From NCBI GenBank assembly GCA_945483525.1, contig CALYRV010000025.1, forward strand, positions 1 through 18,648: a stretch of DNA of 18,648 bases, read 5' to 3'. A model generated the notes under the pieces. It did no database searches and was not told the DNA's origin. It saw only the letters and a program-made list of their open reading frames with translations. Each line of letters begins with the position of its first letter. The stretch's first letter is position 1. This document shows, piece after piece, positions 2,707-12,168 of this stretch. The position numbers and the translations under genes are program-made. The DNA is from an uncultured Verrucomicrobiota bacterium. GTDB lineage: Bacteria; Verrucomicrobiota; Kiritimatiellia; RFP12; UBA1067.

Positions 2707-3840
2707 ATGAATAAAGCCCTTCACGTTCTGGTATATTCTTTCCTCATCCTTTCCGGTGCGGCGCTGTTCTTTGAAATACAGCTCAACGCCAAGCGCACGT
2801 TGCTCACCGATCGTAACCGCATGCAGGAAGACTTCTTCGTCAGCATCGCGAAAACAATCGAAAAGGCTGAAGCCGAGAAAGCCACAGCGCTTGAGCTCAA
2901 GAAGGATTCAGATCCTGTAGAGGCGAAGATTATCGACATCCCCAACACCGACAATGTCCTTGAGGATTACAACAATACCCTTGAGACAGCGAATCTTGAC
3001 ACATTCCAATGGGATAACCAACGTGATCGCGGTCAGCTCCGCATGGTCTACGTGCTCGACAGCGAGGGCAAGCCGGTAATGGATGGCAATCAGCCGCTAA
3101 AGACTGGCAAGGGCACCGAGCACGAAATGCTCTCCACGCTTTTTGAGGCCGCCAAGGGCCAGCAGACGCGGCTTAACACCACCCGTGCCGAGCTCGTCGC
3201 GCTCCGCGGCAAACTTGAAGATGCGATCGCCGAGATCAACAAACTGAAACCGATCATGCGACAGGACAAGGTCACGATCGAGGAAAAGAAGGCCGAGATA
3301 GCCAAGCTCGAAGAAGCAAAGGCCGCGCTTGAGAACGAGATCGTCAGGCTGAAAAGCCACATTGAAGAGCTCAACACCGAAATCACCTCGCTTAAAGATC
3401 AGGTCGTAAACTGCCAGAACGAGATTGAGCAGTGCAAGGAAGAGCTGGCGAAGAAAGACAAGATCATCGAATCGCAGAAGAAGATCATCAAGGAGTCTGT
3501 CCAGACCGGCGGCGGCAAGGCGCAGGTCGGCACCGCCGTCGCCTCAATCCCCGCTGGCGACAAAGGCGAAGTGGTCGAAGCCGACAACGAAAATATGTTC
3601 GCGATCGTCAAATTCTCCGACCATGCGCTCAAACAGCTTCATGGCGGAAACATGGATTCGCCGCTTCCAGCGCTGGAACTCGGCGTAAAGCGTAAAGGCT
3701 TTAACGGCCCCGCTGGCGAGTTCGTCGGCCGCATCAAGATCCGCCAGGAAGTCAAGGGCAAGCCCTACGTGATTTGCGACATCATCGGCAGCTGGGAACA
3801 GGATAAGCTCGCTACTGGCGACATCATCTTCGCCGACTAA
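2707..3840 (+). CDS. Membrane-anchored coiled-coil protein with C-terminal beta domain, function unknown
   Basis: The 377-residue product has an N-terminal transmembrane anchor (about 6-24) and a short acidic region. A long charged coiled coil spans about 141-266 (heptads rich in Glu, Lys, Leu and Ile). The C-terminal domain of about 105 residues, probably beta-rich, ends in FVGRIKIRQ ... GDIIFAD. The architecture suggests a periplasmic or envelope spacer with a terminal beta module; I do not recognise the family. A TTG at 2686 opens the frame earlier, but the ATG at 2707 has AGGAA nine bases upstream and begins directly with the anchor, so it is preferred. It leads a plus-strand set with the tiny lipoprotein and the pseudouridine synthase (gaps of 38 and 19 bases). 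Confidence 0.8.
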   Translation: MNKALHVLVYSFLILSGAALFFEIQLNAKRTLLTDRNRMQEDFFVSIAKTIEKAEAEKATALELKKDSDPVEAKIIDIPNTDNVLEDYNNTLETANLDTFQWDNQRDRGQLRMVYVLDSEGKPVMDGNQPLKTGKGTEHEMLSTLFEAAKGQQTRLNTTRAELVALRGKLEDAIAEINKLKPIMRQDKVTIEEKKAEIAKLEEAKAALENEIVRLKSHIEELNTEITSLKDQVVNCQNEIEQCKEELAKKDKIIESQKKIIKESVQTGGGKAQVGTAVASIPAGDKGEVVEADNENMFAIVKFSDHALKQLHGGNMDSPLPALELGVKRKGFNGPAGEFVGRIKIRQEVKGKPYVICDIIGSWEQDKLATGDIIFAD

Positions 3841-3878: not shown

Positions 3879-4040
3879 ATGGTTAAAAAAATTATTCAAG
3901 CGACTTTCGGTATCGGGCTTCTCGCTCTCGCGGGGTGCATTGCCGATACCGCCGAGGATACCGATCTTCCCTGGGCCAGCGGGCAGAGCTGGGAAGGCAT
4001 GGCACCGATCGCCCCCTCCATGATGGATAGATACGAGTAA
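3879..4040 (+). CDS. Very small lipoprotein (53 residues)
   Basis: The frame opens with ATG at 3879 and ends with TAA at 4038-4040. The first 20 residues form a lipoprotein signal: MVKK, a hydrophobic core, and the lipobox LAGC with Cys20. The mature peptide would be only 34 residues, acidic then Trp/Pro-rich (DLPWASGQSWEGMAPIAPSM). I recall similar short lipoproteins with a DLPW ... WEG core in PVC genomes, but cannot check this here. It lies 38 bases after the coiled-coil gene, and its stop codon touches a four-unit heptamer array leading into the pseudouridine synthase. The Shine-Dalgarno is poor (GGGG about 11 bases upstream). The function is unknown; it is presumably lipid-anchored in the envelope. 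Confidence 0.7.
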   Translation: MVKKIIQATFGIGLLALAGCIADTAEDTDLPWASGQSWEGMAPIAPSMMDRYE

Positions 4041-4067
4041 GTGAACAGGGAATAGGGAATTGATAGA
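4040..4067 (+). repeat. Heptamer array A (four units, degenerate)
   Basis: Four 7-base units, AGTGAAC, AGGGAAT, AGGGAAT and TGATAGA, lie between the small lipoprotein stop and the first codons of the pseudouridine synthase. They belong to the same RGTGMAN family as the arrays at 4697, 10012, 10093 and 12115. The purine-rich units supply the only Shine-Dalgarno-like bases before the TTG start. Confidence 0.6.
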
Positions 4068-5010
4068 GAACAGAATATTCACAAACAAGAAGAGCGGCGT
4101 TCGGTTGGACGCCGCAATTCTTTTGGCCTGCCCTTCCTCCACGCGATCCTTCATCAAAGAGGCGATTGCGACAGGCGACATTCTCGTAGGCGCGCAAGAA
4201 TCCGCTCCTTCAGGCGCTAAACGTGCATCAAAAGGGCTCAAGCTGCGCGGAGGAGAGGTCGTCGTTATCAGGCGTCTGGCAGAGGCCGCGGACAATACGG
4301 TCCTTCCCGATGGGGACTGTCCCCCTCCTGTTTTCGAAGATGATGCTTTGCTTGCATTCGACAAGACCGCTGGCATGCCGGTGCAGCCACTATCCCATAG
4401 CGAAACCGGCACATTAATGAATGCTGTCGTTACCCGCTATCCAGAATGCATCCCGCTTGGGGACAGGCCCCTAATGGCTGGAGCATTACATCGGATAGAC
4501 GCAGATACGTCTGGACTCGTCCTCGTCGCCAGAACCGCAGAAGCCTTTAACGAACTGCGTGCGCAATTCACAGCCCAAACCGTTGAGAAAACCTATCTCG
4601 CCCTCGTGGAAGGGTCCGTCGCCGTCGGCGGCACCCTTGAAAACGACCTCGTTCACGACCCGACACTCCCCTTTTGCCGTATGATTGACGTCAGAAGATG
4701 CAGGGTACAGGGTGCAAGATGCAAGGTTTTGCACGCCGTAACCAAGTTCAAGCCGATCGCGCATACGACAATGGAAAACGAGGAACGGACCCTGCTTGAA
4801 GTGAAGATCTTCACTGGAGTGACCCATCAGATTCGTGCTCAACTCGCACTCGCAGGAATGCATATCATCAACGATCGTCTTTACGGAGCATTCGCGATCG
4901 AACACCAAACTGGTCACTGTCTCCATGCACTCGCCGCAAGATTCGTCCACCCGATCTCCGGCATCCCCATGGAAATAAGAACGCCGTACCCATCATGGGC
5001 ACGGCTGTAA
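4060..5010 (+). CDS. RluA-family RNA pseudouridine synthase
   Basis: The enzyme isomerises uridine to pseudouridine in rRNA or tRNA. An S4-like RNA-binding region occupies about residues 14-72 (RLDAAILLACPSSTRSFIKE ... LKLRGGEVVVI). The catalytic domain carries HRIDADTSGLVLVA with catalytic D147 and the late motif GVTHQIRAQLA. Length (316) suits the RluA/RluD family, but the exact target cannot be told. The only usable start is TTG at 4060: an in-frame stop lies at 4042-4044 and no ATG or GTG precedes the conserved region. The gene carries three repeat insertions: array A at its start, a GGGGAC-T-GTCCCC palindrome at 4312, and array B in frame at residues 213-222, in a loop that varies among relatives. 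Confidence 0.88.
   Translation: MIENRIFTNKKSGVRLDAAILLACPSSTRSFIKEAIATGDILVGAQESAPSGAKRASKGLKLRGGEVVVIRRLAEAADNTVLPDGDCPPPVFEDDALLAFDKTAGMPVQPLSHSETGTLMNAVVTRYPECIPLGDRPLMAGALHRIDADTSGLVLVARTAEAFNELRAQFTAQTVEKTYLALVEGSVAVGGTLENDLVHDPTLPFCRMIDVRRCRVQGARCKVLHAVTKFKPIAHTTMENEERTLLEVKIFTGVTHQIRAQLALAGMHIINDRLYGAFAIEHQTGHCLHALAARFVHPISGIPMEIRTPYPSWARL
4312..4324 (+). repeat. GGGGAC-T-GTCCCC palindrome inside the pseudouridine synthase
   Basis: This is a perfect inverted repeat with 6-base arms and a 1-base centre. It encodes GDCP in the linker between the S4-like and catalytic domains. The form resembles REP-type palindromes seen in many bacterial genomes, but only one perfect copy is present here. 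Confidence 0.5.
4697..4724 (+). repeat. Heptamer array B (four units) inside the pseudouridine synthase
   Basis: The four units are GATGCAG, GGTACAG, GGTGCAA and GATGCAA. They are read in frame as part of RRCRVQGARCKV, in place of the short, variable loop that normally precedes the strand leading to the late motif. This is the same class as array D at 10093 (unit RGTGCAG). Confidence 0.65.
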
Positions 5011-5038
5011 CCGCGCAACAAACGACGGGAATACGCCA

Positions 5039-5068
5039 GCGCGGCAAACGGCGAACTCCTTGCCGCGC
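5039..5068. terminator. Stem-loop between convergent genes, likely bidirectional terminator
   Basis: GCGCGGCAA (5039-5047) and TTGCCGCGC (5060-5068) form a perfect 9-bp stem around a 12-base loop. It lies in the 61-base gap between the convergent pseudouridine synthase and ktrA genes. No strong T-run follows on either strand, so it may act as an RNA end-protecting hairpin or need Rho. Confidence 0.5.
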
Positions 5069-5071
5069 CGA

Positions 5072-5728
5072 TTACGACAGCGCGTCCAGCTTGCGCGTCT
5101 CTCCGAAGACTATCAATTTGTCATCTGGCTCAAGCTTGTCACTCGCCTGCGGAATCACGATTATACGGGGCTTCTTCGGATCTTCGCCCACACGGCGAAT
5201 GCAAAGCACCGTCACACCGCTCTTCTTACGTAGATCCGCCTCGGCCAGCGTCTGACCACGCACCCCGTCCGGCACATCAATCTCGGCAATCGAATATCCC
5301 TCGGACACCTCGAGGAAATCAACTACCGCATGGTTCGCAATCGCCCGCGCAAGACGATGGGCGCTATCACGGTCAGGATAAACAACAGAATCAGCACCGA
5401 TCTTGCGAAGAATCTTACCATGCAATTCGCTAGTAGCCTTCGCCACTACATTCGGAACGCCGAGCTCCTTACAATTAGCCGTCGCCATGATCGAAGCCTC
5501 CATGTTAGATCCGATCGCGACGATCACTACATCGCACTCCGCAAAGCCGGCCTCTTCCAACACGTGTTCCTGGGTTGCGTCGCCCTGCAACGCAGTCGCG
5601 AATTCCGACGCATTCTGCATGGCTGGACGATTACGATCGATAAGTAGCACCTCTGCACCGGCATTGGCTAGCGACTCCGCAAGCGACATACCAAATCGTC
5701 CGGCACCTATGATTCCAATTCTCTTCAT
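5072..5728 (-). CDS. ktrA: KtrA/TrkA-type potassium channel regulatory (RCK) protein
   Basis: Cytosolic RCK proteins bind nucleotides and gate a membrane K+ transporter (KtrB/TrkH). The 218-residue length equals one RCK_N plus one RCK_C unit, as in KtrA rather than the doubled TrkA. RCK_N begins with the Rossmann motif GIIGAGRFG, an acidic residue ends strand 2 (LLIDRN), and GDAT follows. RCK_C is at about 135-215 (YSIAEIDVP ... DKLIVFG). The ATG has a good GAGGAG upstream. It is the last gene of a four-gene minus-strand set, 29 bases after the acyl-CoA ligase. No transporter partner is in the window, which is unusual, so the partner must be elsewhere. Confidence 0.88.
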   Translation of the reverse strand: MKRIGIIGAGRFGMSLAESLANAGAEVLLIDRNRPAMQNASEFATALQGDATQEHVLEEAGFAECDVVIVAIGSNMEASIMATANCKELGVPNVVAKATSELHGKILRKIGADSVVYPDRDSAHRLARAIANHAVVDFLEVSEGYSIAEIDVPDGVRGQTLAEADLRKKSGVTVLCIRRVGEDPKKPRIIVIPQASDKLEPDDKLIVFGETRKLDALS

Positions 5729-5757
5729 ACTCTCCTCACCTCTCCGTCATCCAACGA

Positions 5758-7410
5758 TTAATAACTGATCCCGTTCTGCTGAGCGACGAGCCCCGCCGCC
5801 CCGTACATCTTGCGAAGCTTAGGCTTTTCGATCTTGCCAGTGGGATTGCGCGGCACCTCGGCAAAGATGATCTTGCGAGGACGCTTGTAACGCGGCAACG
5901 CGAGACAGAAGTCGTTGACCTGCTGCTCCGTCAACGACATCCCTTCCTTTACCGAGATAATCGCCGTGGCGATTTCGCCGAGACGCGCGTCGGGAAGCCC
6001 GATGACGGCCACATCCTTGATCGCCGAATTGGACCGGAGGAAATCCTCGATCTGCACCGGATAAAGGTTCTCACCTCCAGTGATGATCACGTCCTTCGCG
6101 CGATCGACGAGATAAATAAACCCGTCACGCTCCTCTGCCATATCTCCGGTAAGTAGCCAGTCCGGTTCCTTCTTGATCTCGGCCGTGGCCTTCGGATTCT
6201 TATAGTACTCCTTCATCACGCCAGGACCCTTGAGAGCCAGTTCTCCAACCTCGCCTGGCCTGACCGGAGTGATGCCGTCGGAGCCGACGATCTTCGTCTC
6301 CCAGCCGTAGCCGGCGACACCGATCGCGCCAACATGATCAATATTCTCAATGCCGAGATGCACAGCGCCAGGCCCAGTCGACTCGGAGAGCCCGTAATTG
6401 GTATCATAGGCATGATGCGGGAAGACGCTCTTCCAACGCTTAATGAGCGACGGCGGCACCGGCTGCGCGCCGATATGCATAAGCCGCCACTGATCCAGCT
6501 TGTAATCGGCGAGCTTCACGTCGCCGCGATCAATCGCGTCCAGAACATCCTGAGCCCAAGGGACCAGCAGCCACACGATCGTACACTGCTCCTCCGAAAC
6601 TGCTCGGATGATGCAATCAGGCTTCACACCTTTCAACAGCACCGCCTTTGAGCCAACGAGCAACGAACCGAACCAGTGCATCTTCGCTCCGGTATGATAA
6701 AGCGGCGGAATACAGAGGAAGCAGTCGTTCTTCTGCTGACCGTGATGCGCCTGCTCAACCTTGCAACTGTGCACGAGACAACGGTGCTGAAGGACTATCG
6801 CCTTCGGGAAACCGGTAGTGCCGGAAGAGAAATAAATGGCCGCCTCATCCTCTGGAAACATCCGAATGCCGGGATTCCTCGACACGCAGAAATCAACAAG
6901 ACGGTAGTACGATTCGGCGAACACGGGACAGTCTCCGCCGACATACAGCCGCGCCCTGACCATCGGCATCTGATCCGCAATCTGCTCAACACGCCCGATG
7001 AATTCGGGACCAAACACCAGCCCCACCGCATCCGAAAGCTCAAGGCAGTACTTGATCTCATCGGCGGTATAGCGGAAATTCAGCGGCACCGCCATGCATC
7101 CCGCCTTGAGGATGCCGAAGTAGATCGGCAACCACTCGAGGCAGTTCATCAACAGGATTGCAATCTTGTCCCCCTTGTTGTAACCGCGGGATAGCAGGAA
7201 GTTGGCGAAACGGTTGGACTTCTCCTCGAACTCCTGCCAGGTCAGTTCCTTGCGGAACGCCTTGTCGGGCACCGATTCGACGAGCTCCGCCTCCTTCCAG
7301 GTCTTATGCCTGCCGACATCGGGAGTGTCGATTTCAACAAGCGCCACGTCATCCGGCCACTCACGCGCATTTCGCTCCAGTATCTCCGTTATATTGTCGA
7401 ATTCCGGCAT
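5758..7410 (-). CDS. AMP-forming acyl-CoA synthetase / acid-CoA ligase
   Basis: The 550-residue protein belongs to the adenylate-forming (ANL) family, which activates a carboxylic acid as acyl-AMP and then usually transfers it to CoA. Visible motifs are the P-loop SSGTTGFPKA (about 195-204), YGLSEST (339-345), TGDMAEERDGFIYLVDRAKD (421-440), the hinge/GGEN region, and catalytic Lys526 in NPTGKIEK. An insert of about 30 residues precedes the first core strand (residues 28-57), which I recall from a subgroup found in anaerobes. The substrate is not evident. A GTG at 7425 is in frame, but AGGTGG six bases before the ATG at 7410 decides the start. It lies 11 bases after the thioredoxin-like gene, so it is clearly co-transcribed. 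Confidence 0.9.
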   Translation of the reverse strand: MPEFDNITEILERNAREWPDDVALVEIDTPDVGRHKTWKEAELVESVPDKAFRKELTWQEFEEKSNRFANFLLSRGYNKGDKIAILLMNCLEWLPIYFGILKAGCMAVPLNFRYTADEIKYCLELSDAVGLVFGPEFIGRVEQIADQMPMVRARLYVGGDCPVFAESYYRLVDFCVSRNPGIRMFPEDEAAIYFSSGTTGFPKAIVLQHRCLVHSCKVEQAHHGQQKNDCFLCIPPLYHTGAKMHWFGSLLVGSKAVLLKGVKPDCIIRAVSEEQCTIVWLLVPWAQDVLDAIDRGDVKLADYKLDQWRLMHIGAQPVPPSLIKRWKSVFPHHAYDTNYGLSESTGPGAVHLGIENIDHVGAIGVAGYGWETKIVGSDGITPVRPGEVGELALKGPGVMKEYYKNPKATAEIKKEPDWLLTGDMAEERDGFIYLVDRAKDVIITGGENLYPVQIEDFLRSNSAIKDVAVIGLPDARLGEIATAIISVKEGMSLTEQQVNDFCLALPRYKRPRKIIFAEVPRNPTGKIEKPKLRKMYGAAGLVAQQNGISY

Positions 7411-7421
7411 TCCATCCCACC

Positions 7422-8255
7422 TCACTTAGATGTCTTCTTTAACTCCGCCGCCTTCGTCTTGAGCTCAACGAGTTTATCCTTGTATTCCGCTGCCTCGTCA
7501 GGAAAGCTCTTCACGTACTGGGTAAGCAACTTCAGCGCCGCATCTGGATTGATGTCGGCAAGCGCAATAATATTATCACGGATCTCCGACTTGGCGTCCT
7601 TGATTGCAGAAAGGATGCTCGACGCCTCCTCAGCCTTGGCCTTATCCATCACCGTCGCCGTCTTCCTGTCCGCCTTAGCGACATCCTTCTCAAGCGCCTT
7701 GATTGTACCCTTGAGATTGACACCGAGCTTCAACTTGTTCGCAAGCGACTTGTATTTCTCCAGCGTGACGCCAGGAATAATATTCGGCGGCATACCGACC
7801 GAAGTGATAGCACCCACCAGAATCTCCTCATCCTCCTTCTTTAATCCCATGCCCATGGTTGTCGACACGAGCACCTTGCCGAACTGACTGATGACGGCGA
7901 CACTTCCAGATTCACGCTCCTTAGCATCGGTCGCGAGTTTCGCCCCCTTATACACCGGGAACGTCGTCTTGAGCTTCGGCAGTTCCGCCGCGGCCTTCTC
8001 CTTCTCCCCTGCCCAAGAACCGAGTACACAAAAGCGCTTCTTGTCATACGCCTTGTACAGCTCCTCCACACGAGGCGTCTGCTTCTCCGTCTGCTCGTTG
8101 GCATTCATGATGAACAACAACACGACCTTACCTAACAGATCTCGTTCAGTGATCTTGGGACCACCAACATGGTTCTCGTCCGTAATTCCCTCCCACAACC
8201 CGGCGTTAGCCACAGCAGCAACCACCATTATGGCACCAGCGATAATTCGTTTCAT
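7422..8255 (-). CDS. Exported thioredoxin-like protein without CXXC (paralogue 2)
   Basis: The 277-residue product has a typical signal peptide (MKRIIAGAIMVVAAVANA). It then has LWEGITDENHVGG, and GKVVLLFIMNANEQTEKQTP at the place where a TlpA/AhpC-like thioredoxin fold would carry its WCxxC. No Cys pair is present; the only Cys in that region is C76 (FCVLG). A helical Lys/Ala-rich C-terminus (about 165-277) follows. The neighbour at 8308 shares the order and the signature WxGxTxENHxGG, so the two are tandem duplicates. AGGAGG six bases before the ATG at 8255 selects this start over an adjacent ATG at 8258 and an earlier in-frame codon at 8294. The function is unknown, probably a periplasmic binding or scaffold role rather than a redox enzyme. 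Confidence 0.72.
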   Translation of the reverse strand: MKRIIAGAIMVVAAVANAGLWEGITDENHVGGPKITERDLLGKVVLLFIMNANEQTEKQTPRVEELYKAYDKKRFCVLGSWAGEKEKAAAELPKLKTTFPVYKGAKLATDAKERESGSVAVISQFGKVLVSTTMGMGLKKEDEEILVGAITSVGMPPNIIPGVTLEKYKSLANKLKLGVNLKGTIKALEKDVAKADRKTATVMDKAKAEEASSILSAIKDAKSEIRDNIIALADINPDAALKLLTQYVKSFPDEAAEYKDKLVELKTKAAELKKTSK

Positions 8256-8307
8256 CATGACCCTCCTGAATTTGAACTTTCCTGCGCCAAGCACCTAGCG
8301 ACAGGCA

Positions 8308-9111
8308 TTACATCTCCGCCATCGCCCATTTGAGGTCTGCGATGCAGTTCTTAGCCTCTTGAACAATGAGCGGATTTTCACTCTCCTTGAGCGGCGCCGC
8401 CGCCTCAATCAGAGCCTCGATCTTCTTCTTACTCACCTTGACCGTCTTGCCGCCCTTCTTGGTATTCGGATCGAAATCCTTCACTCGGCGGGCGATCTCC
8501 TCAAGTTTGGAGACCTTCTTCACCTCCTCGTCCGCATCCAATTTCTTGAATGCCGCGGCATAATACTGAGCATCGGAGGGAAGCGCCTTCTGCATATCCT
8601 TGATATGAAGATACGCCTTGCCGGGCAACACCTCCAATTCGTAGTCGATAAGCTTACGGTACTGCCCGACGGTTGACGGCACCGCACCCCAAGTAAGCGC
8701 ACTGATCACCGCTTCAAAGGCACGATTTAGGTCCTTTGTCTTAATCGCCATCTTGCCGCCCTGATGAATCACATAGATAAGCCCGTTTTGCGCCTCAAAA
8801 GTCTGAGACTCAAAAGTAGCTCCCGCATAAACAGAAAACGATATGTCGGCAGACTTGATATTCTCCTTTGCAGCCGCCACATCGCCACCACAATGAGATC
8901 CGAGCATCACAAACGGCTTACTCTTGTAACTCAGCCAGAAGTCCTCCAGCCGCTCCAGATCGGCCTTGTTTTTGGAATAATCGCGGCAATCCACAAGAAA
9001 AACCTTGCCCTGAAGATAACCAGGGGACGCGGGACGGCCGCCAAGATGGTTCTCGGGCGTGACCCCACCCCAGACAATCCCAGCTGCCAGCATAATCGTT
9101 ATACCGAACAT
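8308..9111 (-). CDS. Exported thioredoxin-like protein without CXXC (paralogue 1)
   Basis: The 267-residue protein has a short hydrophobic N-terminus (about 1-14), then GGVTPENHLGG and GKVFLVDCRDYSKNKADLER, matching its downstream paralogue. The predicted thioredoxin-like segment (about 35-150) has no CXXC. C42 and C74 are isolated. The C-terminal half is helical and charged, with KKGGKTVKVSKKK near 220. Its ATG follows an extended -10 element by 9 bases, and an in-frame stop lies at 9127-9129, so no longer start exists. The signal sequence therefore lacks the usual basic n-region, which makes export less certain. It is the first gene of the set with paralogue 2, the acyl-CoA ligase and ktrA. 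Confidence 0.7.
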   Translation of the reverse strand: MFGITIMLAAGIVWGGVTPENHLGGRPASPGYLQGKVFLVDCRDYSKNKADLERLEDFWLSYKSKPFVMLGSHCGGDVAAAKENIKSADISFSVYAGATFESQTFEAQNGLIYVIHQGGKMAIKTKDLNRAFEAVISALTWGAVPSTVGQYRKLIDYELEVLPGKAYLHIKDMQKALPSDAQYYAAAFKKLDADEEVKKVSKLEEIARRVKDFDPNTKKGGKTVKVSKKKIEALIEAAAPLKESENPLIVQEAKNCIADLKWAMAEM

Positions 9112-9120
9112 ATTAACTGA

Positions 9121-9129
9121 ATTATATCA
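9121..9129 (-). promoter_or_regulatory. Extended -10 promoter, minus arm of a divergent pair
   Basis: On the minus strand this reads TGATATAAT, a perfect extended -10, ending 9 bases before the ATG at 9111. No -35 match and no Shine-Dalgarno are seen, so the transcript would be leaderless or nearly so. Confidence 0.65.
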
Positions 9130-9145
9130 CAATCGGACGAGGTTG

Positions 9146-9154
9146 TGGTATAAT
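9146..9154 (+). promoter_or_regulatory. Extended -10 promoter, plus arm of a divergent pair
   Basis: TGGTATAAT is a perfect extended -10 that ends 7 bases before the ATG at 9162. The expected start of transcription (about 9161) falls on the start codon. No -35 or Shine-Dalgarno is visible. The opposite arm is only 16 bases away. Confidence 0.65.
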
Positions 9155-9161
9155 AAGACCC

Positions 9162-9644
9162 ATGAAAATAACGGGAACGATAGTCATCTCCGCATTCTTA
9201 TCGTTGTCCTGCGCCGCATCCACCAACGCCACCAAGAAGGCGGCGTCCCCGTTAATTCCCACCAACGAATGGACCATGATTCGACAGGTCGCCAGCAACT
9301 ATCAGTTGAGCGACGACGCCACCTGGCTGCTGGCGGCGATCAGAAGGCATGAGAACGGACGCCCCGGACTCGAATTCGGAATCGGCGGTCCGATGAATTC
9401 CGGGCATCCCGCACATCGTTATCAAGATGGTGTAAAAAGCTTCTATATCCAGGCCATGTGGGCTGCCGGGACCATCCGTAAACACTACACCGGCGACATT
9501 CACAAATTCGCAAAGCGATACAATCCCAACCACGCCAAGAAATGGAAATCCGGAATCATATCGCTGATCACTCGGCTAAAGAACGAAAACCAGCAAAAGC
9601 TTCCCGGCGCCAAGCCCGCGAAAAAGACCATCTCCTTCCCCTGA
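9162..9644 (+). CDS. Exported lysozyme-like (transglycosylase-fold) protein
   Basis: The 160-residue product has an N-terminal signal (MKITGTIVISAFLSLSCAAS). Cys17 could be lipidated, but the lipobox is poor, so SPase I cleavage is equally possible. The region 37-140 looks like a small lysozyme/SLT fold: AAIRRHENGRPGLEFG, with E64 as the likely catalytic acid and E71 nearby. AMWAAGTIRKHYTGD and FAKRYNPNHAKKWKSGI follow, close to the pattern in small muramidase-like domains that cut or bind peptidoglycan. A basic tail ends the protein. It is transcribed from the divergent extended -10 with essentially no leader. The hydrolase at 9675 follows by 30 bases. Substrate assignment is inference. Confidence 0.7.
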   Translation: MKITGTIVISAFLSLSCAASTNATKKAASPLIPTNEWTMIRQVASNYQLSDDATWLLAAIRRHENGRPGLEFGIGGPMNSGHPAHRYQDGVKSFYIQAMWAAGTIRKHYTGDIHKFAKRYNPNHAKKWKSGIISLITRLKNENQQKLPGAKPAKKTISFP

Positions 9645-9674
9645 TCACCACCCCGCGTCCATCCACATTCTCTT

Positions 9675-10337
9675 ATGCAACGTCACACCATTCAGGTCGG
9701 ATCCTTTGAAGTCAACTGCTCAATCCTCGAAAACGATGGCAAAGCGCTTATCATCGATCCCGGACAAGAACCCGATCGCATAATCGCAACGCTGGAAAAC
9801 AAAGGCTGGGTCCCCGAGGCAATTCTCCTCACCCACGGACACTTCGACCACATCAACGGCATCCCCGGTCTCCTCAAGCGCTTTCCTGACCTCCCAGTCT
9901 TCGTTTCTCCCGAAGACGCCAAGGTGATGTCCAACCCAATGAACACATTTCCTCCGGAGTACCTCCCCGTCACCATCCCCACGAAGAACTTGAGAACCGA
10001 CCTCCACAACTCTTCACTTCTCACTATTCACTTTTCACTCATCCCGACCCCCGGACACACTCCCGGCGGCGTCTGCTACCTCTTCCAAAACCCTGCACCC
10101 TGCACCCTGCACTCTGCACTCCGCTCTTCCCCACACCCAACCCCCATCCTCTTCTCCGGCGACACCCTCTTCGCGGGCTCCGTCGGTCGCACCGATCTCC
10201 CCGGCGGCGACATGGCGACCCTGATGCGCTCCCTTGATTCCCTGCGCACACTCCCCGAAGACACGGTGGTCATTCCGGGACACGGAATGACCACCACGAT
10301 TGGACGCGAACTCGCCTCCAACCCCTTCCTGCAGTAA
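9675..10337 (+). CDS. Metallo-beta-lactamase-fold hydrolase, glyoxalase II-like
   Basis: The 220-residue cytosolic hydrolase has the full MBL metal set: THGHFDH (H54, H56, D58, H59), PGHTPGG with H128, SGDTLFAGSVGRTD with D163, and PGHG with H203, followed by the common tail TTIGRELASNPFL. The family includes hydroxyacylglutathione hydrolase-like thioesterases; the natural thioester is unknown. Two heptamer arrays lie inside the gene. Array C encodes residues 113-122 just before the PGHT strand. Array D encodes 140-149 between the CYLF strand and ILFSGD, where relatives have a tight turn. Both keep the frame and leave all metal ligands intact. No Shine-Dalgarno is seen; translation may be coupled to the lysozyme-like gene. 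Confidence 0.88.
   Translation: MQRHTIQVGSFEVNCSILENDGKALIIDPGQEPDRIIATLENKGWVPEAILLTHGHFDHINGIPGLLKRFPDLPVFVSPEDAKVMSNPMNTFPPEYLPVTIPTKNLRTDLHNSSLLTIHFSLIPTPGHTPGGVCYLFQNPAPCTLHSALRSSPHPTPILFSGDTLFAGSVGRTDLPGGDMATLMRSLDSLRTLPEDTVVIPGHGMTTTIGRELASNPFLQ
10012..10039 (+). repeat. Heptamer array C (four units) in the MBL-fold gene
   Basis: The units CTTCACT, TCTCACT, ATTCACT and TTTCACT are, on the other strand, AGTGAAG, AGTGAGA, AGTGAAT and AGTGAAA. The array is read in frame as part of SSLLTIHFSL. It is the same class as arrays A and E. Confidence 0.7.
10093..10120 (+). repeat. Heptamer array D (four units) in the MBL-fold gene
   Basis: CTGCACC twice and CTGCACT twice make a nearly perfect array (unit RGTGCAG on the minus strand), only 53 bases after array C. 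It is read in frame as PAPCTLHSAL, extending a surface turn between two core strands. Confidence 0.75.
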
Positions 10338-10342
10338 TTTTC

Positions 10343-11512
10343 TCAGATACCCTTGAAGGCGTATTTGAGGCCGATTTCAAGGCCGCGGAGTTCGGCAAGT
10401 CCGATAATGCGGCCGCCGTATGAATAACCGCAGTAGCACTTGCGACCCTTGTCGATCTCCATGAAGCGTCCGTGATCGGGACGCACCACGATGCCAGCCT
10501 TACGGCGCTTCTCCTCCTTAAGGAATTCAAGCATCAACGACGGCAGATCGGTATTGCCCACGAGATGACACTGCGACTCGTGGAAGATTCCCTTCCCGGT
10601 ATACTCAAGATTGCGGAAGTGACAGAAATAAACGCGCTCGCCGAACTCCTTGAAGATCTTCACCGCATCGTTCTTCGGATCGCCGCCGAGGGAGCCCGTG
10701 CAGAGCGTAAGGCCGACGTGCTTCGACGGACACTTCCTGTACATCTCGCGGATGTCCTTCGCGTTCGAGAGAATGCGTGGAAGCCCGAAGATCGGATGCG
10801 GCGGATCGTCTGGATGAATGCACATGTCGACGCCGTACTTGTCGAGCACCGGACTGATTTCGTTCAGGAACCAGTACATGTTCTCGCGGAGCTTCTTATC
10901 ATCAATCCCCGCATAGGTCTTGAGCTCCTTCAGGAACTGCGACGGAGTGAGATCATCGACCGTTCCGGGAAGTCCCGTAAGAATCGACTTCTGCACCCGC
11001 ATCCGCTCCTTCGGCGAATACTTCTTCCAGAGCGCTTTCGCTTTTCTCCTCGTGTCCGCGTCGTAGTCATTCTCAGCCCCCGGACGCTTCAGCGCGAACA
11101 TATCAAACGCCGCAACCTCGTACTCGTTGTACTCGAGACACGTAGAGCCGTCCGGCAAGGCGTACTCAAGATTCGAACGCGTCCAGTCGAGGATCGGCAT
11201 GAAGTTATAACAGACTGTCTTGATCCCGCACTTCGCGAGGTTGATCAGCGTCTGCTTGTAGTTCGCGACGTACTTGAGATAGTCGCCCGTATGCTTCTTG
11301 ATGTCCTCGTGAATCGGCACCGATTCGACAACAGACCAAGTCATACCCGCGTCTTTAATCTTCTTCTGCCGCGCCTTGATCTCCGCAACCGGCCACACTT
11401 CGCCGGGCTTGCGTTCGTAAAGCGCCGCGACAATATCAGTCACACCAGCCTGACGAATCTCCTTCAACGTGATCGCGTCGCGATCACCGTACCAGCGCCA
11501 TCCCTGCTTCAT
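10343..11512 (-). CDS. uxuA: Mannonate dehydratase
   Basis: UxuA dehydrates D-mannonate to 2-keto-3-deoxygluconate in hexuronate catabolism. The 389-residue length and sequence fit the family from the N-terminus (MKQGWRWYG) to the end. The metal site of the TIM barrel is complete: H233 in CIHPDDPP, C271 in LCTGSLGG, H298 in CHFRN and D346 in RPDHGR. The start ATG overlaps the TGA of the preceding lipoprotein gene as ATGA, with AAGGGG upstream, so the two are translationally coupled. It is the last gene of the carbohydrate operon and ends 5 bases from the convergent MBL-fold gene. UxuB (fructuronate reductase), KdgK and KdgA are not in the window. Confidence 0.96.
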   Translation of the reverse strand: MKQGWRWYGDRDAITLKEIRQAGVTDIVAALYERKPGEVWPVAEIKARQKKIKDAGMTWSVVESVPIHEDIKKHTGDYLKYVANYKQTLINLAKCGIKTVCYNFMPILDWTRSNLEYALPDGSTCLEYNEYEVAAFDMFALKRPGAENDYDADTRRKAKALWKKYSPKERMRVQKSILTGLPGTVDDLTPSQFLKELKTYAGIDDKKLRENMYWFLNEISPVLDKYGVDMCIHPDDPPHPIFGLPRILSNAKDIREMYRKCPSKHVGLTLCTGSLGGDPKNDAVKIFKEFGERVYFCHFRNLEYTGKGIFHESQCHLVGNTDLPSLMLEFLKEEKRRKAGIVVRPDHGRFMEIDKGRKCYCGYSYGGRIIGLAELRGLEIGLKYAFKGI

Positions 11513-12096
11513 CTGTTTATCCCCTTCATTTCGGACGCCACCATCTTGGCGAAGTCACTTACGGCCTTGGATCCGGATTTGTTTCCGATCGCCAGCACGC
11601 GGTCAGCCTGCGCACTCTTCCCGCACCAGCGAAGCTGATCGAGGAAGAACATCTTACGATAATCGTCCGGCGCCTTCTCCGCCGCACCCAGGAGCGCACA
11701 CGTCCAGATCTCGCGGGCCGCCGGCGCCTTCTCCCACTTCTGACACATCACAATCTGCGACACGCCCGCGATCTTCGTCGCTACCATCGGATCGGTCTTG
11801 TACGCCTTCTTCACCTGCGATAGGAGACCATCCGCGTTCTTCGGCAGCATCACGTATTGCTGAAGCGCCTTGAAATCAGCCTCCTTCGTCAGCGCCTCAG
11901 CATTCTTGTTGTGCCACTCGACCGCCATCGGCAAATCCCTGTCCGAAGCCATACCCTTGCCATAATCGGCGAACGGGTTCGGATCGCCGGCCATCTCCGG
12001 CAGCTCTGGTTCGACAGACACCTGTGTGGTCGTGCACCCGCCGATAATCACCGCCAGCGCCACCGCCGCCAGCCCCTTGATAATCCTGCAATTCAT
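11509..12096 (-). CDS. Lipoprotein of unknown function in the uxuA operon
   Basis: The 195-residue product starts with a lipoprotein signal (MNCRIIKGLAAVALAVIIGG followed by the lipidated Cys21). The mature part has an acidic/proline segment and then a mostly helical body with two conserved-looking Trp-Cys pairs (REIWTCALLGA and DQLRWCGKSA) and a Lys-rich end. I do not recognise a family. GGAGG at 12104-12108, seven bases before the ATG at 12096, decides the start over an in-frame codon at 12120. Its stop overlaps the uxuA start by four bases. Heptamer array E and a hairpin separate it from the oxidoreductase gene. It could be a surface or periplasmic partner of the DUF1080 lipoprotein; this is inference from context only. 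Confidence 0.7.
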   Translation of the reverse strand: MNCRIIKGLAAVALAVIIGGCTTTQVSVEPELPEMAGDPNPFADYGKGMASDRDLPMAVEWHNKNAEALTKEADFKALQQYVMLPKNADGLLSQVKKAYKTDPMVATKIAGVSQIVMCQKWEKAPAAREIWTCALLGAAEKAPDDYRKMFFLDQLRWCGKSAQADRVLAIGNKSGSKAVSDFAKMVASEMKGINR

Positions 12097-12114
12097 AAAT
12101 CTACCTCCGTAATT

Positions 12115-12142
12115 CTTCACTCTTCACTTCTCACTCTTCACT
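12115..12142 (-). repeat. Heptamer array E (four units) between oxidoreductase and lipoprotein genes
   Basis: On the minus strand the units read AGTGAAG, AGTGAGA, AGTGAAG and AGTGAAG. The array fills the intercistronic gap in a transcribed position, directly after a 10-bp hairpin. Confidence 0.75.
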
Positions 12143-12168
12143 CGGAATTCAACCTTTGTTGAATTCCG
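12143..12168 (-). other. Perfect 10-bp hairpin at the end of the oxidoreductase gene
   Basis: CGGAATTCAA (12143-12152) and TTGAATTCCG (12159-12168) pair perfectly around a 6-base loop. The stop codon (12149-12151) lies within the stem. No T-run follows in the direction of transcription; array E follows instead. It is therefore more likely an mRNA-stabilising or differential-expression hairpin than a strong terminator. Confidence 0.6.

What the first reader, a model, noticed from the sequence alone, without database searches (positions are those of the whole stretch)
4040..12142. A family of dispersed four-unit heptamer arrays (RGTGMAN)
Arrays at 4040-4067, 4697-4724, 10012-10039, 10093-10120 and 12115-12142 each hold four 7-base units (28 bases). 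Put in one strand and register, the units are AGTGAAN (A, C, E) or RGTGCAG (B, D), differing mainly at one base. They occur in both orientations, in intercistronic gaps and inside genes. Five copies in 18.6 kb of coding DNA is far more than chance. The fixed copy number suggests a mobile or templated unit rather than free slippage. Heptanucleotide repeats (STRRs) are known from heterocystous cyanobacteria; an equivalent in this kind of genome would be noteworthy.
Basis: partly seen in the sequence, partly recalled or inferred. Interest (0 to 1): 0.72.

Follow-up and report, generated by a model that had tools for sequence, protein, structure and literature searches.

The report
Fast-changing seven-base repeat arrays
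A gut bacterium's DNA is dotted with short runs of a seven-letter word, and in related species some of the same spots, even inside enzyme genes, carry runs of a different seven-letter word, so the spacing can outlast the wording.

Summary
The arrays are real. C, D and E are clear (TRF); A and B are worn but above chance. A has three units, not four, and copy number is not fixed: 4-5 units are commonest, range 3-18, in the two relatives counted. The window belongs to a Kiritimatiellae relative; its own genome is not held, so counts come from relatives.

There, period-7 arrays exceed a Markov null (41 against 3 in 1.75 Mb) and motifs follow lineage. Sites can outlast words. In the window's metallo-hydrolase family, site C can be encoded with 7-nt periodicity in 33 of 50 proteins and site D in 5, against 0 of 6,908 background windows; some peptides imply other heptamers. 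Between two sister genomes, 6 of 17 array loci hold a heptamer array at the orthologous place (1 of 205 controls), four with a clearly different motif. One hairpin element keeps its core while both arms differ.

Verdict: a new variant of the known heptanucleotide-repeat class, most likely made by 7-nt-step duplication with fast turnover. A mobile unit of fixed copy number is not supported for the window.

The parts
4040..4060 (+). Array A: three units AGTGAAC AGGGAAT AGGGAAT, filling the gap between a 53-codon ORF (stop 4038-4040) and the TTG start at 4060 of the pseudouridine synthase ORF
   Evidence: start codon as listed by the ORF tool, not proven
4697..4724 (+). Array B: four worn units of RGTGCAR inside the pseudouridine synthase gene
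   Evidence: purer in ortholog P0143 by its peptide
4060..5010 (+). RNA pseudouridylate synthase gene (RluA-type) that holds array B
   Evidence: Pfam PF00849, E 5.1e-24
10009..10039 (-). Array C (site C): four units of AGTGARN, read on the coding strand as TTCACTN
   Evidence: many orthologs have 7-periodic-codable peptides here
10090..10120 (-). Array D (site D): four units of RGTGCAG, read on the coding strand as CCTGCAC
   Evidence: 16 residues here are missing from the 85% identical ortholog P0002
9675..10337 (+). MBL-fold metallo-hydrolase gene that holds arrays C and D
   Evidence: Pfam PF00753, E 2.5e-29
12114..12143 (-). Array E: four units of AGTGARN in the gap between an oxidoreductase gene and a lipoprotein-like gene
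   Evidence: lipoprotein start taken as ATG at 12096 behind GGAGG, by eye; the ORF tool lists a GTG start at 12120
11509..12096 (-). Lipoprotein-like gene downstream of array E, no Pfam match

Best explanation
The five arrays belong to a class of short, degenerate heptamer tandem arrays that these genomes keep making and remaking. Shown: excess over nulls, motif families bound to lineages, presence and absence between relatives, a different heptamer at some orthologous places, open reading frames through arrays in two enzyme genes. Inferred: new arrays arise by tandem duplication in steps of 7 nt (polymerase slippage or unequal exchange), at least sometimes from a chance seed of about two units; spread of one motif over a genome comes from copying between arrays (ectopic conversion) or from dispersal of hairpin elements; turnover can replace the unit along an array before the array is lost. 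They persist where extra DNA does little harm: spacers and variable protein segments, in an orientation without stop codons. The window's copies need no function of their own.
For: Chance excluded. Motif bound to lineage: GATAAGY x3 in 3 of 114 genomes, 44 of the 56 matches in one. Array D absent in the 85% ortholog, array B shared by P0143. Sites B, C, D stand out for 7-nt codability: 10 of 51, 33 of 50 and 5 of 50 proteins reach 0.80, against 2 of 13,529 and 0 of 6,908 background windows. Heptamer array at the orthologous place in 6 of 17 loci against 1 of 205 controls. A gain of exactly 21 bp next to two near-units (G062:C14:18944). Slippage proposed for heptanucleotide repeats by Mrazek 2007, as told in PMC4679880 section 3.
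Against: No step of the mechanism was seen happening. In 11 of 17 sister loci no array passed the threshold in the other genome, so persistence of sites is partial. At site C most peptides are variants of one kind and only P0029 is clearly different. Orthologous arrays of the window are known as proteins, not DNA. Other periods are in excess too: 9, 12 and 15 (probably coding repeats) and 8. Local slippage alone does not explain one motif at many loci.
Confidence: 0.55

Rival explanations
1. The arrays are arms or remnants of mobile hairpin elements (MITE- or REP-like): inverted heptamer arms around a core, spread by a transposase or by template switching; single arrays are half-elements.
For: In G062 and G061 a 37-nt core occurs 12 times with arms in register; 18 of 81 arrays have an inverted partner, 0 of 81 in shuffles; RGTGAAN-type arrays also occur as inverted pairs in G061.
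Against: 13 of those 18 paired arrays are from G062 and 63 of 81 are unpaired, the window's three included. No core was seen beside the window's arrays. Target-site duplications were not established: the sister sites compared are not clean empty sites. Arms change motif, which fits a transposase-bound end poorly.
Confidence: 0.2
2. The arrays are regulatory sites, for example translation or transcription elements in front of genes, as suggested for TAACTGA repeats.
For: A abuts a start codon and E lies just upstream of a GGAGG and start codon, as many TAACTGA arrays do (PMC4679880).
Against: Three of five arrays are inside genes; motif and presence change between sister species, which a conserved binding site should not do.
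Confidence: 0.1
3. Chance or assembly artefact.
For: A and B are worn and below the TRF threshold; most DNA here is from MAGs.
Against: 10 matches against 0.04 expected; protein clusters with 34 and 23 member sequences, 98% identical to the window's proteins, carry sites C and D and site B.
Confidence: 0.03

Closest known systems
GGGNATC heptamer repeats of Xanthomonas and Nostoc (Rehm et al. 2015, PMC4692102; abstract and sections 3, 10, 14 read)
   Same: Dispersed degenerate 7-nt arrays, preference for four units, many inverted pairs, length differences between related species.
   Different: One G-rich motif able to form G-quadruplexes, 89-93% intergenic, and 83% of repeats of one species present with the same motif in the other; here many motifs, no G-tracts in C and E, intragenic arrays in the window, and change of motif at some orthologous places.
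TAACTGA direct repeats of Beggiatoaceae, Cyanobacteria and Bacteroidetes (MacGregor 2015, PMC4679880; abstract and sections 3, 10, 15 read)
   Same: Two to six (in places more) heptamer copies, many next to start codons, some in genes in the stop-free orientation, patchy distribution, indels in 7-nt steps between related strains.
   Different: One fixed heptamer; the paper reports related heptamers to be rare as repeats in that genome; here units are degenerate and motifs differ between species.
Long simple sequence repeats with heptanucleotide units (Mrazek et al. 2007; not read, known through)
   Same: Tandem 7-nt units beyond chance in non-pathogens.
   Different: Units here are degenerate; the original definition was not checked.
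STRR heptanucleotides of cyanobacteria (recalled; Calothrix case mentioned in PMC4692102 section 3)
   Same: 7-nt tandem units, dispersed.
   Different: Other phylum; sequences not compared here.
Rickettsia palindromic elements (recalled, no source read)
   Same: Repeat DNA surviving in frame inside genes.
   Different: Palindromic; the window's arrays are not.

Membership tests
Heptanucleotide long simple sequence repeats | Tandem 7-nt units beyond statistical expectation | tested here: met
   Window. Relatives: 41 against 3 in a Markov-3 null.
Heptanucleotide long simple sequence repeats | Copy-number change in whole 7-nt units between related genomes | tested here: inconclusive
   One clean 21-bp difference (G062:C14:18944); other sister loci differ by more than units.
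GGGNATC repeats | Unit GGGNATC with four G-tracts | tested here: not met
   Units in C and E are AGTGARN; A holds two AGGGAAT units, D has some GGG runs.
GGGNATC repeats | Preference for four units | tested here: inconclusive
   4 and 5 units are equally common in G062, 4 is commonest in G061; threshold needs about three.
GGGNATC repeats | Inverted pairs | tested here: not met
   Not for C, D, E; met for 18 of 81 arrays of the whole sample, 13 of them in G062.
TAACTGA repeats | Unit TAACTGA | tested here: not met
   Sequences.
TAACTGA repeats | Position just upstream of start codons | tested here: inconclusive
   A and E yes, B, C and D inside genes.
Mobile element (MITE- or REP-like) | Inverted ends or shared core around the window's arrays | tested here: not met
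   for C, D, E; A and B not tested for partners.
Mobile element (MITE- or REP-like) | Target-site duplication | not tested
   No empty site at DNA level for the window; sister sites of G062 are not clean.
Cyanobacterial STRR | Sequence relation to published STRR units | not tested
   Paper search for heptanucleotide + STRR + cyanobacteri returned 0 papers.

The most novel reading that the evidence does not exclude
In this bacterial family the 7-nt step and the site of an array can be inherited while the word is rewritten: homologous spacers, hairpin arms and even enzyme segments hold unrelated heptamers in related species. That calls for a process, copying between arrays or active writing, that replaces many units, and in one element both inverted arms, while core and flanks stay.
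Probability: 0.3. Interest if true: 0.78.

Novelty: new variant of a known kind. Interest (0 to 1): 0.55.

Why it matters
Why longer bacterial microsatellites favour 7 nt is open. A lineage in which some arrays keep place and period but change word between species of about 90% identity makes it testable: one locus can be followed through birth, change of motif and loss, and proteins record it, because a heptamer runs through all three frames in 21 nt. It also suggests that repeat DNA becomes part of ordinary enzymes: array C encodes the residues just before the TPGHT motif of a metallo-hydrolase.

Tried and rejected
Fixed copy number of four: rejected. A shared 3' flank of B and D (GGTTTTG): dropped, because in B the TTG is the conserved leucine codon before HAVT in relatives (by eye). 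Mirror copying between the arms of one hairpin element: with all 12 elements p = 0.065 (0.015 if shifts of one unit are allowed), but without the one switched element p = 0.42 (0.18), so not supported. A known RNA family: none in the window at gathering scores; the G062 element gives only hits far below gathering scores to miRNA models, which I take as long-hairpin artefacts. My first idea that site C was array-free in P0039 and P0042 (SWEVEK...) is doubtful: that stretch is their most 8-periodic-codable window, 0.84. The only other-phylum control is: 806,525 bases of mostly Bacteroidota and Enterobacterales loci hold 7 period-7 and 5 period-8 runs at 17 of 21, against 43 and 26 in 1,629,714 bases of Kiritimatiellae DNA (summed from its rows); so such runs are not confined to this lineage. 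Samples were not random: genomes were chosen through a UxuA hit, an MBL hit or earlier array hits. Periods 9, 12 and 15 are also in excess over the null (131, 141 and 47 against 20, 34 and 8).
Full report
What is in the window. Searches show the five places. TRF reports C, D and E (it also lists a 2.1-copy period-7 run at 3683 and two runs of other periods). A period scan at 17 of 21 matches keeps D and E and finds nothing at periods 4-6 and 8-12. The degenerate pattern test gives 10 overlapping matches against a mean of 0.04 in 200 shuffles. A and B are real but worn.

Where they sit. A lies between the stop of a 53-codon ORF (3879-4040) and the TTG start of a pseudouridine synthase gene; B lies inside that gene. 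C and D lie inside an MBL-fold hydrolase gene, whose coding strand reads TTCACTN and CCTGCAC. The other way round AGTGAAN gives a TGA within three units, so C has the only orientation that an open gene allows (from the sequence). E takes 30 of about 52 bp between two genes on the minus strand, if the ATG at 12096 is the start.

Whose genome. Mannonate dehydratase (10343-11512) matches MAGs titled Kiritimatiellae, Verrucomicrobia or uncultured bacterium, many from ruminant guts, at up to 84% identity (only the best 80 loci were kept). The window's own genome is not held. One search covered 114 genomes of the family of the first relative; 108 hold an MBL match, the best full-length ones about 60% identical. 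Closer orthologs were found only as proteins.

Relatives hold many such arrays. In 1,752,773 bases (window included) TRF at score 36 or more gives 41 period-7 rows after removal of overlaps, against 3 in a Markov-3 null, and 25 against 3 for period 8; periods 10, 11 and 13 are near the null, periods 9, 12 and 15 are in excess too. Period-7 rows of score 40 or more have 2.9-9.3 copies, median 4.6 (31 rows). Motifs go with the genome: GATAAGY x3 in 3 of 114 family genomes, 44 matches in one. RGTGMAN x3 with one mismatch is in 65 of 114; single matches are near chance by my estimate, but 531, 265 and 79 in three genomes are not (overlapping matches within an array are each counted, and the reversed control pattern also matches often in some genomes). 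Four RGTGAAN units with one mismatch are in 45 of 288 phylum genomes, up to 349 matches (that genome also has 121 control matches). An octamer, CTCTGCGY x3, is in 87 of 114.

Same site, other word: proteins. I aligned the MBL protein with the 49 closest of 120 listed orthologs. P0002, 85% identical, lacks 16 residues at array D. For each 11-residue window I took the highest 7-nt periodicity that any synonymous coding allows. Site C reaches 0.80 in 33 of 50 proteins and site D in 5, while 0 of 6,908 background windows do. For the pseudouridine synthase (50 closest of 120 listed orthologs plus the window) site B reaches 0.80 in 10 of 51, against 2 of 13,529 background windows. At C most peptides are variants of one kind (FLTFHFSF, SLLTIHFS, SLFTLNSS); one, LPTINYQLST in P0029, implies another heptamer. 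At D there are three kinds (PCTLHSAL; TNHEPRITNH and TNRESPTTNHE; SHQEPGAKRQ). At B there are several (RCRVQGA; IRDQGSG; RGKREEG; SQISNLKS). This shows that periodic coding is possible, not that the DNA is periodic; of these genes I saw DNA only for the window and for more distant genomes. P0143 (88% identical) shares array B in a purer form. Of the 5 residues by which P0001 (98%) differs from the window, 2 fall in site D.

Same site, other word: DNA. Two sister genomes, G062 and G061, share a 10-kb block at 88% identity. Of 51 period-7 loci in the G062 sample, 17 have a resolved orthologous interval in the part of G061 that I held. Six of these hold a period-7 run in G061 (16 of 21 or more), against 1 of 205 control intervals and 1 of the 18 controls that changed in length. 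In four of the six the motif is clearly different (RGTGCYT against GAGCTTR, TAGCTTT, GATTGAR or a GGTGGTT-like run). In the other two it is related, either to the array itself or to its neighbour. In 11 nothing passes the threshold, though one search shows a shorter array of another motif at one of these and a worn array of the same length at another. Several orthologous spacers hold quite different repeats, octamers and 9-mers among them. One gain is clean: at G062:C14:18944, in what reads as coding sequence, G062 has 21 bp (three units) more than G061, which holds two near-units there.

Hairpin elements. In G062 and G061 heptamer arrays often come as inverted pairs around a core. A 37-nt core is found 12 times with arms in register, 9 in G062 and 3 in G061, at 26 of 37 matches or more; one further hit per genome, at 25, is a homologous stretch without arms and was left out; the best shuffled score is 24. 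At one locus present in both species flanks and core are kept but both arms differ: RGTGCYT in G062, GAGCTTR next to the core in G061 with GTGC-type units left at the outer ends. Two further loci with paired arms in both species also differ in motif, but their cores are not shared. Over the arrays sampled, 18 of 81 have an inverted partner within 160 bp, 0 of 81 with shuffled arrays; 13 of the 18 are from G062. Three elements fold strongly (z -5.8 to -12.4); the window's C and E do not (z 0.10 and -0.45), D weakly (-2.67).

Reading. Step and site can outlast the word. Slippage in 7-nt steps, proposed for heptanucleotide repeats by Mrazek 2007 as told in PMC4679880 section 3, explains birth and unit-wise change; one word at many loci of a genome needs copying between arrays or dispersal of elements. 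That part is inferred. The closest published cases are GGGNATC (PMC4692102) and TAACTGA (PMC4679880). Searches of the held library for Kiritimatiell + tandem repeat gave one paper, a Baltic Sea review by its title and abstract, and for Verrucomicrobi + heptanucleotide none; the library lacks most subscription journals.

Limits. Most DNA is from MAGs; samples were partly chosen after earlier hits; DNA of the window's close relatives is missing; genes are plain ORFs; the sister comparison covers one pair of species.

Noticed in passing
L219 14513-14634 and 14754-14859; L228 5083-5186; L233 15889-16025; others in G062 and G061: Hairpin element family: a conserved 37-nt core between inverted heptamer arms, 12 copies in the DNA held; at one locus both arms differ in motif between the sister genomes.
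   Followed up: partly
114 family genomes: Octamer CTCTGCGY, three units or more, in 87 of 114 genomes, up to 94 matches in one.
   Followed up: no
G062:C3 interval orthologous to G061:C2 18001+22143: A long run of degenerate 9-mers (TTAAGGTCG-like) in one sister genome where the other has a short heptamer array.
   Followed up: no
L012 3634-3667 against L034: In two genomes about 97% identical over the shared part, one has ACGAAYC heptamers and the other an unrelated palindromic-looking stretch, just before the same TATAAT.
   Followed up: no
L088 1501-1690 and 2200-2320 (G006): A 97-bp unit with AGTGAAT-type arms in inverted orientation, repeated directly, near copies of it also elsewhere on the contig.
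   Followed up: no
site C of P0039 and P0042: Where the window has a heptamer array, these orthologs have a peptide (KVGKLKSWEVE) that can be encoded with 8-nt periodicity (0.84).
   Followed up: no
window 3879-4040: Small ORF (53 aa) with a lipoprotein-like start (LALAGC) whose stop codon touches array A.
   Followed up: no
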